Origin: Diadema setosum
Taxonomy: Eukaryota; Echinodermata; Echinoidea; Diadematoida; Diadematidae
Assembly: GCF_964275005.1 (NCBI RefSeq)
Contig: NC_092698.1
Coordinates: 31,179,162 to 31,243,161 of the forward strand
Reading direction: 5' to 3'
Length of the DNA stretch: 64,000 nucleotides
Shown: positions 29,753 through 48,226 of the stretch, piece by piece
Layout of the letters: each line of letters starts with the position of its first letter
Numbering within the stretch: the stretch's first letter is position 1
Program-made: the position numbers and the translations under genes
Notes under the pieces: generated by a model
The model's input: only the letters and a program-made list of their open reading frames with translations
Told to the model about the DNA's origin: nothing
Databases searched by the model: none

Positions 29753-32700
29753 TTAAACTTTGAGAATTTTCCTGCCCGGGTAGAGCTCACCCACATTCGA
29801 CTGACCCGCATTCACTTGGGAAGGTTTCTTGACATCATTTTCCGCCCCGTTTTGAGAATTACCATTGGTCAGTTCGTCAACGCGATGCTCCGCCTTCTTG
29901 TCATCCGAGCGGGTGGGCGCGCTTTCTTGGCTCGGTGTCGGCTGCTCACTTTTCCCACTGGTGGTTGGGAGTGTTTTAGCGTCAGATTTCGACGTGGATG
30001 CATCAACATCAGGTGAAGATGGAGCGCGCTCTTTCTTGGTTGACGCCTTTCTCGGCTTCCCATTCGCTGCAAACAATAAAGTTTATGTATGGAAAAGCAT
30101 TGTAACCATATCACTTTTTAAAACGAAAAAAGAGGAAGAAAAGAACAAGAACATTCAGTATTAGAAAAGCTATGAATAGTAAGAATTCTTTAGCGAAAGT
30201 TTTGACTTGCAGTTCTGCATCCTCTGAACGGATTAAAGGAAAAGTTTCAGCATTAATGAATTGAAAGGCAAGGTTTTCATGTCACACACACACACACACA
30301 CAACATGGTACACTTGGCATGAAGTAAATACATGCATTCTACATTGATGTCACTAAACAACAATCAATATCGGTATTGAATGTTGACGTGTTTGTCAGAA
30401 CATCAGGTACTTTTAATGTGACGTGGCGCTCACCTGCGCTGCTGGAACTCGTACTTGGCGTAGCTCCACCCTCTATCACCCTGCTGCTGTTCGGCCCACT
30501 CAACCGGCCTGTGTTGGCGCTGACCACGCCCACCGGAGAGCCCGCCCCTCTGTTGTGAGATACCACTCCGTGGGACCTGAGCAGCTGTGCCTTAGTCAAT
30601 AGGAATGAGTCGTTTGTCTGCATGATCTTGTGGGCGCAGCCTTGTTTTGGCGGGACGCCATCCTTGTGGGATCGCGCGAGGAGAAAGCTCTCGTCTGTTT
30701 GGGTGCCGATTCCGTCGATCTCAATTTTTTCGTCGCTCAGCTCTAAAGCGACCACGTTCTCGATGCCGAACAGCTCGTCAGATCTACCACCACACAGTGA
30801 GATGGTTCACTAGAATTAGTTATAGTCTCTGATCTAACGATATTCTAACATACAGTAGAAATACAATGGACTTTCATCGAAAGTATGGTATCGTTCAGTT
30901 TGCTTGAATATTTGATAACGAAATGAAGCAAATTTCGAAGAAACTGCAAAAACGCAAGTTATCACTCTTGACAAGAACGTCAATCACGGTTAATAAAACA
31001 TGCTCCATATCTTTTGGCAGAAGATGAAGGAATGGTAATACAATCTTGGTCAACCTTGATTAATAGAAGCAATATTTTGCTGTTTCAAATTCAATTCAAC
31101 AAACGTATGTAGTCATCTTTGATAATAATAATAATAATAATAATAATAATAATAATAATAATAATAATAATAATAATAATAATAATAATAACAAAGCTTC
31201 AATAAAGCATATTAACAAATCCATGTTCCCTCTACGCTTTACAATAACTCTTATCTATTTTACAATCACATTATCACAAAAACAAAATTTTACAAATTAC
31301 ATCCAAAACAACAACATAAAATATCGTATAAAAAAAGTTATATTGAAAGTTATTTCATACGTTATCAAGTCTCCGTTTAACTCTGAAATGTGAACTGTAT
31401 GAAAAACATATATCATCATACTTTCCAGTTCGACCGCCCCTTTTGTTGAATAGGTTGATGCAACTCGCAGCGATAATGGCCAGAACGATGATGCCTGCAA
31501 TCGAGCTCGCAGCGATGATACCAACATAGAGATTTGCTGCGAAAAACATACAAAAAGTGAATAATCTTAATATCCTCGAATATCAAAGACGAAAAATATC
31601 CAGAATCGACAATAATGTAATGCATGAGACTTCAACATTCAACAATTTTGCACTTTAGCATTTGTCATACAGTGTATACCTTCTTAAACTCCTGATAAGT
31701 GTACTTGACACACACACACACACACAAATGTCTTTACAAACCTGACCATCAGAAGCGAAGAAAACACTACAAAGGAATGTTTACATCATTTAATTTCTCG
31801 ACTGTTTATGACGTTTTCACATAGTTTCGCTGATCAAATAGTTATTGTAAGCCCTTCTTTGCGCTTGTACACATGCTTTGCGACCTGCGAGTTCTCACTC
31901 TGCAGTTGATCTCCAAAACTTTTGAGATTAAAAATGTCCAGCGCCATTAGGGAGCTTTAGATTTTAGACGCGCGGACGTTCAAAGAGAAAAAAACATGAT
32001 CTGAGCGTGCGCAGTAACTTGATCCGCGCTACTGCGCACGCTCAGATCATGTTTTTTTCTCTTTGAACGTCCGCGCGTCTAAAATCTAAAGCTCCCTATT
32101 GCCGAATCTAAGCAAGACGGCAAAATCGAACACTAAACTTAAATGGCGTCTTACCCATTTTGTCTATTACCAGAATTATGTTCGATATCGACAAAATGTT
32201 ACTCAATCTATTTTTTATCGTTTTTAATCCAAATTATGCAACAGATAATTATGTTTTGACGCTTCTAGGCCAGTTGACTAGCGCATTCAAATTTATGAAT
32301 ACCAACTTTCTCTAATAACCGAGTAGTAAGCTGTGACATCCATCTATACTTACTAAATGCAATGCAGGTCTGAAAATATACTTCGCATGAATAAGCGTGA
32401 TGTTGGGCAAACGTCACGCTCAGACAAGCCTTTCTTGTTTGGCAGGCTAATCTTTGAAAGTAGGCATGAATTAATATGTTAGAAAACTGGTCTATTACTG
32501 CTCTCACTTTTGGCATGGTCATCGTCCGACATCTTATCTCCGCAACGCGGTCCACTAAAGTCTTTTCTGCACCTGCACGATGTTACGAAATGAATCCCAG
32601 AAGCAAAATAAGACAGGTAAATATCGCAAACAATCTCTAATCAACAATTTTACTTAAAAAACAACAAAAGACAAAAACAAAAAACGGGGAAGGGGGACTT

Positions 32701-47700: not shown

Positions 47701-48226
47701 ATAAAGCATTCATTTATTCATTCATTCATTTACTTCTGACTAGAATAAATAATACATGTTACTTTTACAGTGGACTATTGCGTCAGGGAATTTAGGCAAT
47801 GAGATAGATGCGGCTAAAGGAAGTGAGAGCTAAAATCGAACAGATAGGGTACGTATACCGTATACAGGGACTGAAATATACACATTAACACGGCAAAGTG
47901 ACAGAGGTGGATTTCCTTAAATGTTGCAATTATGTTTGCGTCTTTTAGTTGTAGCTCGGAGCACCATTCCAAAATGTAGTGAGGGCAGTGCTAAAACAGA
48001 AAATGAGTAAGTCGCGTTTCGGTTTCCACAATATTAAGACACAAGATATTGACTTCAAAATGGCTGATGGACAAGAATAGAGTGATTGACTTGGAAGTTC
48101 ATTGTATCCACCCAGTCGTGTAAGCCTATATTTTTATTTAATGTGCTTACCAGCCGTCAAAGGCGGGAGAAGGCAGCTGAATACGACGAGGATAAAGGCG
48201 CCAAACTTGGTCGACATCCCGGACAT
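29753..48226 (-). CDS. Single-pass membrane protein with SEA-like and EGF domains; unrecognised
   Basis: Eleven coding exons, in gene order: 48226-48151, 39579-39424, 38400-38291, 34700-34636, 34253-34087, 33821-33747, 33425-33263, 32572-32508, 31536-31422, 30783-30434 and 30066-29753. All are GT-AG, every phase joins, giving 1656 nt and 551 aa. The start [16 protein letters not shown] is preceded by an in-frame stop and gives a signal peptide of about 25 residues. Residues 26-80 are a short Thr/Glu-rich stalk. Residues 84-190 look like a SEA domain ([11 protein letters not shown]...[11 protein letters not shown]...TVNELHVML). Residues 192-245 are Cys-rich. Residues 246-284 are an EGF domain ([12 protein letters not shown]...[12 protein letters not shown]). 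Residues 295-320 are one transmembrane helix, followed by the stop-transfer NKRGGR. The tail (322-551) is Ser/Thr/Lys-rich and disordered. Four or so N-glycosylation sites lie in the ectodomain. SEA next to EGF before a membrane helix recalls transmembrane mucins, but I recognise no named orthologue. Further stalk exons could hide in the 8.6-kb first intron. Confidence 0.85.
31122..31191 (+). repeat. (AAT)n microsatellite
   Basis: About 70 bp of AAT units in the intron before the last two coding exons of the SEA-EGF gene. Confidence 0.9.
31949..32097. mobile_element. Perfect 68-bp palindrome (foldback MITE) in SEA-EGF intron 8
   Basis: The arms 31949-32016 and 32030-32097 are exactly complementary over all 68 positions, including a 7-base A/T run, with a 13-base loop (ACTTGATCCGCGC). 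The ends read TA-GGGAGC...GCTCCC-TA, so a TA target duplication is possible, and ATT also occurs on both sides. The perfect match implies a recent insertion or ongoing arm conversion. A transcript of the host intron would form a long hairpin. Confidence 0.9.
34900..35190 (+). mobile_element. LINE-type 3' end (5'-truncated), SEA-EGF intron 3
   Basis: Ends with a small hairpin (CAGCC-TGT-GGCTG), then AATGAAATAAATGAAATGAA, the hairpin-plus-short-tandem-tail arrangement known from CR1/L2-like LINEs. No reverse transcriptase remains. The left limit is a guess. Confidence 0.5.
35348..35415 (+). repeat. (TA)n microsatellite, left block
   Basis: A pure TA run that abuts the MITE at 35416. It continues on the other side at 35572. 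Confidence 0.95.
35416..35571. mobile_element. 156-bp hAT-like MITE inserted in (TA)n
   Basis: Ends CAGGGCTCGACACTAA and its inverse TTAGTGTGGAGCCCTG match at 15 of 16 positions. The interior repeats GGGCCACCAAAA. It is bounded on both sides by TA repeat, so the target duplication cannot be read exactly, but an 8-bp (TA)4 duplication would fit. The CAGGG start is typical of hAT-type non-autonomous elements. Confidence 0.85.
35572..35770 (+). repeat. (TA)n microsatellite, right block
   Basis: About 200 bp of TA with rare interruptions and a (CA)n patch near 35726-35750. Poly-Tyr-Ile reading frames over it are artefacts. Confidence 0.95.
37425..37710. mobile_element. Element built of TTCGTTATTCCGAA units with 8-bp target duplication
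   Basis: CAATAGGG occurs at 37417-37424 and again at 37711-37718, directly flanking a 286-bp block. The block holds about ten copies of GTTCGTTATTCCGAAGG and variants (GTTCGTTAATCCGAAA), in plus orientation on the left and inverted on the right. No coding capacity. The 8-bp duplication would fit hAT. A diverged, oppositely oriented relative lies at about 43690-43935. Confidence 0.8.
37870..37926 (+). repeat. (GAT)n microsatellite
   Basis: ATGATG units with one AAATGATG interruption. Poly-His reading frames over it are artefacts. Confidence 0.9.
39811..39908 (+). repeat. Composite low-complexity block: C-run, A-run, (CAA)n, (GAAA)n
   Basis: A run of consecutive simple repeats in intron 1 of the SEA-EGF gene, immediately upstream of its second coding exon. 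Confidence 0.85.
43455..43517. repeat. Hairpin with duplicated arm (CCATGGAGCT)
   Basis: CCATGGAGCTACTAAAC at 43481-43497 pairs with GTTTAGGAGCTCCATGG at 43501-43517, with one mismatch and a 3-base loop. A second copy of the left arm (GAACCATGGAGCTCCT) lies just upstream, so either left arm could pair with the right arm. Confidence 0.75.
43690..43935. repeat. Diverged relative of the TTCGTTATTCCGAA element
   Basis: Contains 'GAATAACGAAC', 'TTCGGAATAACGCCACAATGTTCGGATTATCGAACCC' type words matching the inverted half of 37425-37710, with more mutations. The edges are approximate. Confidence 0.6.
43982..44140. mobile_element. 160-bp MITE with long inverted arms
   Basis: GGGGCCTGTTGTATAAAAGTT at the left is mirrored at the right end (AACTTTTATGCAACGGTCCCC). 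'AACTTTGCCATCCAATGGTAAC' blocks also recur inverted, so most of the element folds on itself. No coding capacity. Confidence 0.8.
44223..44360 (-). mobile_element. 138-bp retroposed insert with 15-bp target duplication
   Basis: AAAAATCATAATCTT is found at 44208-44222 and exactly again at 44361-44375. On the minus strand the insert ends AATAAAACAAAATAAAA followed by a poly-A run that abuts the first duplication. This is the signature of LINE-type target-primed insertion: a truncated LINE tail or a SINE. The source family is not recognised. Confidence 0.85.
44865..46538. mobile_element. Non-autonomous hAT element, 1.67 kb, with 8-bp target duplication
   Basis: Starts CAGTGGCGTATCTAGG and ends with the inverse CCTAGATACGCCACTG. 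TATGTAGG sits at 44857-44864 and again at 46539-46546, a perfect 8-bp target duplication. TIR and duplication length place it in the hAT superfamily. The inside holds no transposase. It is made of repeated blocks: GAGCGAGCGCAGCGAGCGAG at about 45055, 45306 and 45757, a CGTATGTTCGAAACCGTTGG block at about 45554 and 46022, and a TTC-rich tract at 46356-46470. It lies in intron 1 of the SEA-EGF gene. Confidence 0.92.
46356..46470 (+). repeat. (TTC)n/T-rich low-complexity tract
   Basis: Forms part of the right portion of the hAT element. Poly-Phe, Ser and Lys/Glu reading frames over it are artefacts. Confidence 0.9.

What the first reader, a model, noticed from the sequence alone, without database searches (positions are those of the whole stretch)
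29753..48226. Unrecognised SEA-like / EGF / single-helix receptor with long cytoplasmic tail
All 11 coding exons join in phase into a 551-aa protein: signal peptide, short Thr-rich stalk, SEA-like domain, Cys-rich segment, EGF domain, transmembrane helix, 230-aa tail. SEA plus EGF next to a helix is the layout of transmembrane mucins, but the stalk here is tiny and the tail long, and I recall no named orthologue. It may be an echinoderm-specific surface receptor or mucin-like sensor.
Basis: partly seen in the sequence, partly recalled or inferred. Interest (0 to 1): 0.7.

Follow-up and report, generated by a model that had tools for sequence, protein, structure and literature searches.

The report
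Urchin surface protein, mucin-like membrane end
The window holds a convincing split gene, probably from a sea urchin, for a cell-surface protein whose outer part is built like the membrane end of some vertebrate mucins and of growth-factor precursors, with a long inner tail that matched no known family; what it does is untested.

Summary
On the minus strand, eleven GT-AG exons (48226 to 29753) join in phase into exactly 551 aa: signal peptide, 53-aa stalk, SEA-like domain, 5+4-Cys segment, one EGF module, one helix, ~230-aa tail. SEA and EGF are weak Pfam hits below the curated cut-offs (cut pieces: E=7e-4 and 8.6e-4). A mitochondrial contig reads well under code 9, with a gene order I recall as echinoid.

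New here: the single EGF module is cut by an intron between Cys4 and Cys5 and lies about 15 residues from the helix. Those two features are the published signature of EGF-family (ErbB) ligand precursors, also reported for MUC3/4/12/17, IMPG2 and meprins (PMC1618406). So the kind of protein is known. Against plain filing: no self-cleavage motif, no mucin domain, and Cys gaps 6,5,8,1,8 instead of the EGFR-ligand 7,4-5,10,1,8.

Best reading: a type I protein with a sheddable SEA-Cys-EGF ectodomain and a trafficking/signalling tail. Bold reading: a candidate for the EGF-type ligand that a 2016 survey did not find in a sea urchin. Orthologues and expression could not be tested.

The parts
48151..48226 (-). 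exon 1, aa 1-26: start codon (second ATG at 48217) and signal peptide
   Evidence: 2 of the 3 start-exon candidates in 24.4 kb are this exon
39424..39579 (-). exon 2, aa 26-78: short Thr-rich stalk (T 21%, P+T+S 25%), N-glycosylation sequon at N29
38291..38400 (-). exon 3, aa 78-114: start of SEA-like domain
   Evidence: SEA hit aa 98-183
34636..34700 (-). exon 4, aa 115-136: SEA-like domain
34087..34253 (-). exon 5, aa 136-192: end of SEA-like domain; no GSxxV self-cleavage motif; only its own place was reported at E<=1e-3 in the 913-Mb genome (counts are lower bounds there)
33747..33821 (-). exon 6, aa 192-217: symmetric (phase 1-1) 75-nt exon, 5 Cys; weak donor; may be a cassette exon (inference)
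33263..33425 (-). exon 7, aa 217-271: 4-Cys stretch and EGF cysteines 1-4
32508..32572 (-). exon 8, aa 271-293: EGF cysteines 5-6 (ends G-P-R-C); the intron before it falls between Cys4 and Cys5 (phase 2)
31422..31536 (-). exon 9, aa 293-331: transmembrane helix (about 296-318) and basic residues after it
30434..30783 (-). exon 10, aa 331-448: tail; GTQTD (LC8-like), DESFLL (acidic dileucine), near-copy QTNDSFLL by eye
29753..30066 (-). exon 11, aa 448-551 and stop: low-complexity S/T/K/D-rich tail, only tail Tyr (Y543), C-terminus ILKV (class II PDZ-like, recalled)

Best explanation
A type I, single-pass surface protein of the SEA-(Cys)-EGF-helix kind, in the same structural group as the membrane ends of MUC3/12/17 and IMPG2. 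Shown from sequence: the exon chain, the domain order, a single EGF module about 15 residues from the helix and split by an intron between Cys4 and Cys5, no self-cleavage motif, no mucin domain, a long tail. Inferred: the SEA-like domain is not self-cut during folding but stays whole at the surface, where it is opened by force or binding and cut by an ADAM-type sheddase; this frees or presents the EGF module, and the stub may be processed further. The tail handles sorting (acidic dileucine), adaptor-driven pairing (LC8-like TQT motif) and anchoring (PDZ-like end).
For: Exon chain and phases. SEA and EGF hits. Intron between EGF Cys4 and Cys5 plus juxtamembrane place equal the published criterion for EGF-family ligand precursors, reported also for MUC3/4/12/17, IMPG2 and meprins (PMC1618406). 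[quoted passage not shown] here no structured domain precedes the SEA. Tail motifs; LC8 best sequence VSRGTQTE and TQT anchor (PMC6607443 passages).
Against: SEA and EGF are below Pfam gathering scores; the SEA piece has no meaningful PDB sequence match. The fold of the whole SEA domain was not predicted, and exon 5 alone gave a poor all-helix model, mean pLDDT 62, which does not look like SEA but is too weak to count. TQT, dileucine and a hydrophobic C-terminus are common by chance; YxxPhi, PPxY, NPxY and a simple basic NLS pattern were sought in the tail and not found. Many TQT peptides do not bind LC8. No cleavage, expression or orthologue evidence.
Confidence: 0.5

Rival explanations
1. 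It is an EGF-type ligand precursor for the animal's EGFR: the EGF module is shed or presented to neighbouring cells, and SEA and stalk are regulatory.
For: Only one EGF module, about 15 residues from the helix, intron between Cys4 and Cys5, Arg before Cys6 as in all verified ligands but the tomoregulins. A survey found one EGFR but no EGF-type ligand in Strongylocentrotus purpuratus (PMC4914847 passages). Among the PDB chains with one matched stretch, amphiregulin (20.2 bits) and Spitz (19.5) score highest for the Cys-EGF piece; single Notch repeats in the five alignments shown reach at most 16.8 bits. The last loop [17 protein letters not shown] resembles amphiregulin VTCKCQQEYFGERCGEK.
Against: Cys gaps 6,5,8,1,8 fail the EGFR-ligand pattern 7,4-5,10,1,8 at two of five gaps; from Cys2 on they equal those of a Notch2 repeat (alignment). 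Whole Notch chains, with three repeats added up, rank first (E=1.3e-7 against 0.0067 and 0.012). The same intron occurs in mucins and meprins, not established as ligands. The survey did list one neuregulin-type ligand in that urchin. EGFR was not looked for in this genome.
Confidence: 0.18
2. It is a true orthologue of the vertebrate MUC3/12/17 membrane mucins that never gained, or lost, the mucin domain.
For: Juxtamembrane EGF with the same intron position next to a SEA domain. The next gene (20.0-25.6 kb, same strand) is of the carboxylesterase family, with one exon closest to cholinesterases, and human MUC3 lies beside ACHE (PMC9578598 passages).
Against: No PTS domain, no GSxxV motif. Another esterase exon has mixed best hits (thyroglobulin, insect AChE, bacterial esterase). 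In 256 kb around I recognised by eye no other gene of the human locus, from a list of reading frames of at least 105 aa whose print was cut in the middle. [quoted passage not shown]
Confidence: 0.12
3. It is a structural surface or sperm protein related to the sea-urchin sperm protein that gave SEA its name, with little signalling.
For: Sea-urchin sperm protein is one of the three that named SEA (PMC9578598 passages); I recall, untested, a 63-kDa sperm flagellar membrane protein with EGF and SEA.
Against: That protein is recalled as GPI-anchored; here there is a helix and a 230-aa tail.
Confidence: 0.1
4. The gene model is partly wrong: exon 1 or 6 does not belong, or more exons exist.
For: Exon 6 has a weak donor and gives an odd Cys number; intron 1 is 8.6 kb.
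Against: Exact phasing; exon 1 is the best of 3 candidates upstream; I saw by eye no long serine/threonine-rich open frame in intron 1 in the list.
Confidence: 0.1

Closest known systems
Membrane ends of MUC3, MUC12, MUC17
   Same: EGF near the helix with the Cys4/Cys5 intron; SEA, helix, tail with a PDZ-binding end; exact domain order recalled
   Different: No PTS mucin domain, no GSxxV self-cleavage site; C-terminus is ILKV, not the class I motif
IMPG2 (interphotoreceptor matrix proteoglycan 2)
   Same: SEA domains, EGF near the helix, same EGF intron; has a SEA domain (SEA-1) without the cleavage motif
   Different: IMPG2 has two SEA domains, its SEA-2 carries the motif, and it is rich in chondroitin sulfate; here one SEA and a long tail
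EGF-family (ErbB) ligand precursors, e.g. amphiregulin, neuregulins
   Same: EGF module near the helix, Cys4/Cys5 intron, Arg before Cys6
   Different: Cys1-Cys2 and Cys3-Cys4 gaps too short; no SEA domain in known ligands that I recall
Notch and other receptors with SEA-like proteolytic switches
   Same: Juxtamembrane SEA-like domain lacking the self-cleavage site; EGF cysteine gaps as in Notch repeats from Cys2 on
   Different: An EGF module lies between SEA and helix; no LNR repeats found (Pfam); different tail
Echinoderm SEA-containing membrane proteins in print: syndecans and egg bindin receptor EBR1_5
   Same: SEA domain plus one helix in echinoderms (PMC10381214; PMC5521101; passages seen)
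   Different: No EGF module mentioned; EBR1_5 has seven HYR domains; syndecans have glycine-serine motifs and their own conserved tail

Membership tests
SEA-type membrane mucin | SEA domain | tested here: inconclusive
   Pfam SEA E=7e-4 on the piece, 0.014 on the whole; both below gathering score
SEA-type membrane mucin | PTS (mucin) domain | tested here: not met
   53-aa stalk, 25% P+T+S; no long S/T-rich frame seen by eye in intron 1
SEA-type membrane mucin | GSxxV self-cleavage motif in SEA | tested here: not met
   Motif as given in PMC9478142; not present in the sequence, whose presumed strand 2-3 turn reads [10 protein letters not shown]
EGF-family (ErbB) ligand precursor | Intron between EGF Cys4 and Cys5 | tested here: met
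   Exon 7/8 junction at aa 271, between C270 and C272
EGF-family (ErbB) ligand precursor | EGF module close to the helix (within about 25 residues) | tested here: met
   Cys6 at 281, helix from about 296; criterion
EGF-family (ErbB) ligand precursor | EGFR-ligand spacing CX7CX4-5CX10CXCX8C | tested here: not met
   CX6CX5CX8CXCX8C
EGF-family (ErbB) ligand precursor | Binds and activates an ErbB receptor | not testable with these tools
   no experiment
MUC3/12/17 orthologue | Conserved neighbourhood (ACHE and others) | tested here: inconclusive
   Esterase-family neighbour present; no further shared neighbour recognised by eye in the part printed of 256 kb
Sea-urchin 63-kDa sperm protein family (recalled) | Sequence similarity to that protein | not tested
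   Sequence not available in the tools

The most novel reading that the evidence does not exclude
This is the EGF-type ligand precursor that a survey did not find in a sea urchin: a hybrid in which a non-self-cleaving SEA domain acts as the force- or contact-gated release switch for a juxtamembrane EGF module, and a 230-aa tail signals back into the sending cell. It would join membrane mucins, IMPG2 and ErbB ligands to one ancestral SEA-EGF gene.
Probability: 0.14. Interest if true: 0.8.

Novelty: new variant of a known kind. Interest (0 to 1): 0.45.

Why it matters
A literature survey found an EGFR but no EGF-type ligand in a sea urchin (PMC4914847 passages), and SEA-type membrane mucins are described as having emerged in vertebrates (PMC9578598 passages). 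A gene, probably of a sea urchin, with the shared SEA-EGF-helix layout and the shared EGF intron bears on both points and gives a concrete gene to test.

Tried and rejected
Synteny with the human ACHE-MUC3-MUC12-MUC17 locus: an attractive coincidence, but the esterase is not clearly AChE, and around it I recognised, by eye and from a cut print, SLC22-like, amylase-like and BAZ2-like reading frames, not other members of the human locus; not excluded. Tandem paralogues: none in 256 kb; all 11 tblastn hits of the 551-aa protein at E<=1 were its own exons. Internal repeat in the tail: the [16 protein letters not shown] pair was noted by eye; in the shuffle test the best 12-mer pair was a different one and 4 of 200 shuffles reached it, so no claim is made. 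Fold of exon 5 alone: low confidence. The one PDB hit of the SEA piece (VP35, E=1.3) is taken as chance. Paper searches for an echinoderm SEA-EGF receptor (20 of 49, 20 of 390 and 4 of 4 papers listed) and a sea-urchin EGF ligand (12 of 13 listed): in the listings and passages seen, none names such a protein; that is no proof of absence.

Not done: SEA census, EGFR search and esterase count in the own genome, because the genome search answered only 1 of 28 calls.

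Full report
What is there. The gene lies on the minus strand. A first chain by hand gave ten exons and 526 aa. A scan of its nine introns for open, phase-compatible inserts of 66-87 nt passing my splice thresholds returned a single candidate, 33821-33747. The coding exons have 51.9% G+C, their introns 36.4%. In the 24.4 kb of minus strand upstream of exon 2, three start exons with a hydrophobic core and a phase-1 donor passed my thresholds; two are exon 1 with its two possible ATGs, the third is weaker. The splice-site matrices and consensus strings are approximate and recalled.

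The protein. Signal peptide (hydrophobic core from residue 10), stalk 26-78, SEA-like 98-183 by Pfam, nine cysteines at 193-244, EGF cysteines 248-281, helix about 296-318, tail to 551. Pfam finds SEA at E=0.014 and EGF at E=0.011 in the whole protein, and at 7e-4 and 8.6e-4 in the cut pieces; all four are below the curated cut-offs. No Pfam family up to E=10 lies in the tail. The stalk has 21% Thr and 25% Pro+Thr+Ser over 53 residues: no mucin domain. The ectodomain has 15 cysteines, an odd number; without exon 6 it would have 10. The self-cleavage motif GSxxV (PMC9478142, passages seen) is absent from the SEA sequence. For exon 5, the core of the domain, the genome search reported one place at E<=0.001 in 913 Mb, itself; that tool calls its counts lower bounds.

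The organism. Contig 102 of the genome is 15,708 bases long; I read its first 10,000. Under code 9 (echinoderm and flatworm) it carries an intact cox1; by eye the order is nad1, nad2, gap, cox1, nad4L, cox2, atp6, cox3, with tRNA-Arg and tRNA-Lys in between. I recall that order as echinoid; neither other codes nor a reference were compared. The species was not identified.

The key feature. The exon 7/8 junction falls at residue 271, between EGF cysteines 4 and 5, and the module ends about 15 residues before the helix. Stein and Staros (PMC1618406; passages and two of three parts of the ligand section read) characterise EGF-family ligand precursors by these two features and report the same in mucins 3, 4, 12, 17, IMPG2 and meprins. 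They also note that verified ligands other than the tomoregulins have Arg before Cys6; this module has it. The Cys gaps here are 6,5,8,1,8, while the pattern given for seven EGFR ligands is 7,4-5,10,1,8 (PMC8657471, one passage). In the PDB, whole Notch chains rank first (1.3e-7) because their repeats add up; taken singly, Notch repeats in the five alignments shown reach at most 16.8 bits, while amphiregulin has 20.2 bits (E=0.0067) and Spitz 19.5 (E=0.012). All of these are weak. So the gene meets the gene-structure test of the ligand-precursor group, fails the spacing test, and its sequence similarity leans slightly, not decisively, to ligands.

How it may work. In a published chimera assay most receptors with juxtamembrane SEA-like domains were shed and several acted as switches; [quoted passage not shown] Here only the stalk precedes the SEA-like domain, so shedding is likely and may be constitutive (inference). 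The tail has one acidic dileucine motif (DESFLL), one TQT anchor in the context GTQTD, close to the best LC8 sequence VSRGTQTE (PMC6607443, passages), a weaker KIMQT, one tyrosine, and a hydrophobic C-terminus; YxxPhi, PPxY, NPxY and a simple basic NLS pattern were sought and not found. None was tested and each can arise by chance; many TQT peptides do not bind LC8.

Membership. It is not a membrane mucin by definition (no PTS domain, no cleavage motif). It is not shown to be an ErbB ligand. It belongs by layout and intron to the broader group of SEA-EGF juxtamembrane proteins, with a short stalk and a long tail as its own features.

Neighbourhood. The next gene on the same strand is of the carboxylesterase family; one exon is closest to cholinesterases, another has mixed best hits, four of four exons scanned hit PF00135. 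Human MUC3 lies beside ACHE (PMC9578598, passages), so I looked at 256 kb around and saw, by eye and in a print cut in the middle, SLC22-like, amylase-like and BAZ2-like frames. No paralogue of the gene was found in those 256 kb. I treat the synteny as unproven.

Literature. The survey PMC4914847 (passages) lists one EGFR, no EGF-type ligand and one neuregulin-type ligand for S. purpuratus. Known echinoderm SEA membrane proteins that I came across are some syndecans (PMC10381214) and the egg bindin receptor EBR1_5 (PMC5521101), neither with an EGF module mentioned. My searches of the held library for an echinoderm SEA-EGF receptor or a sea-urchin EGF ligand (listings and passages) showed no such protein, which says little, because most journals are not held.

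Limits. No orthologue, transcript or useful structure could be obtained; the genome search answered 1 of 28 calls, so the census of SEA genes, the search for EGFR and the esterase count are missing. My judgement: about 0.9 that the gene is real and essentially right; about 0.5 for the shed-ectodomain reading as a kind, lower in detail.

Noticed in passing
window 20039-25625, minus strand: Carboxylesterase-family gene (PF00135 in four of four exons scanned, best E=2.2e-18), one exon closest to cholinesterases, another with mixed hits; a stretch rich in Asp/Asn/Glu lies inside its open frame near 20.8-20.9 kb.
   Followed up: partly
window 31942-32104: Near-perfect palindrome, arms of 75 nt, 97% complementary, 13 nt apart, inside the intron between exons 8 and 9; looks like a foldback MITE.
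   Followed up: partly
window 37423-37719: 16-nt tandem unit (TTCGTTATTCCGAAGG and variants) present first in one and then in the opposite orientation, giving long inverted arms; similar words near 43.7-43.9 kb by eye.
   Followed up: partly
window 44860-46540: Repeated blocks in intron 1 whose translations resemble frames in contigs C101 and C100 (L023, L024), by eye: probably a dispersed repeat.
   Followed up: no
window 35350-35780: Long TA-rich microsatellites flanking a short G+C-rich unit in the intron between exons 3 and 4 (by eye).
   Followed up: no
L006-L011 (window coordinates about 102000-155000), plus strand: Open frames resembling BAZ2-type chromatin proteins, among them a methyl-CpG-binding-like stretch at about 153.5-153.9 kb; recognised by eye only.
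   Followed up: no
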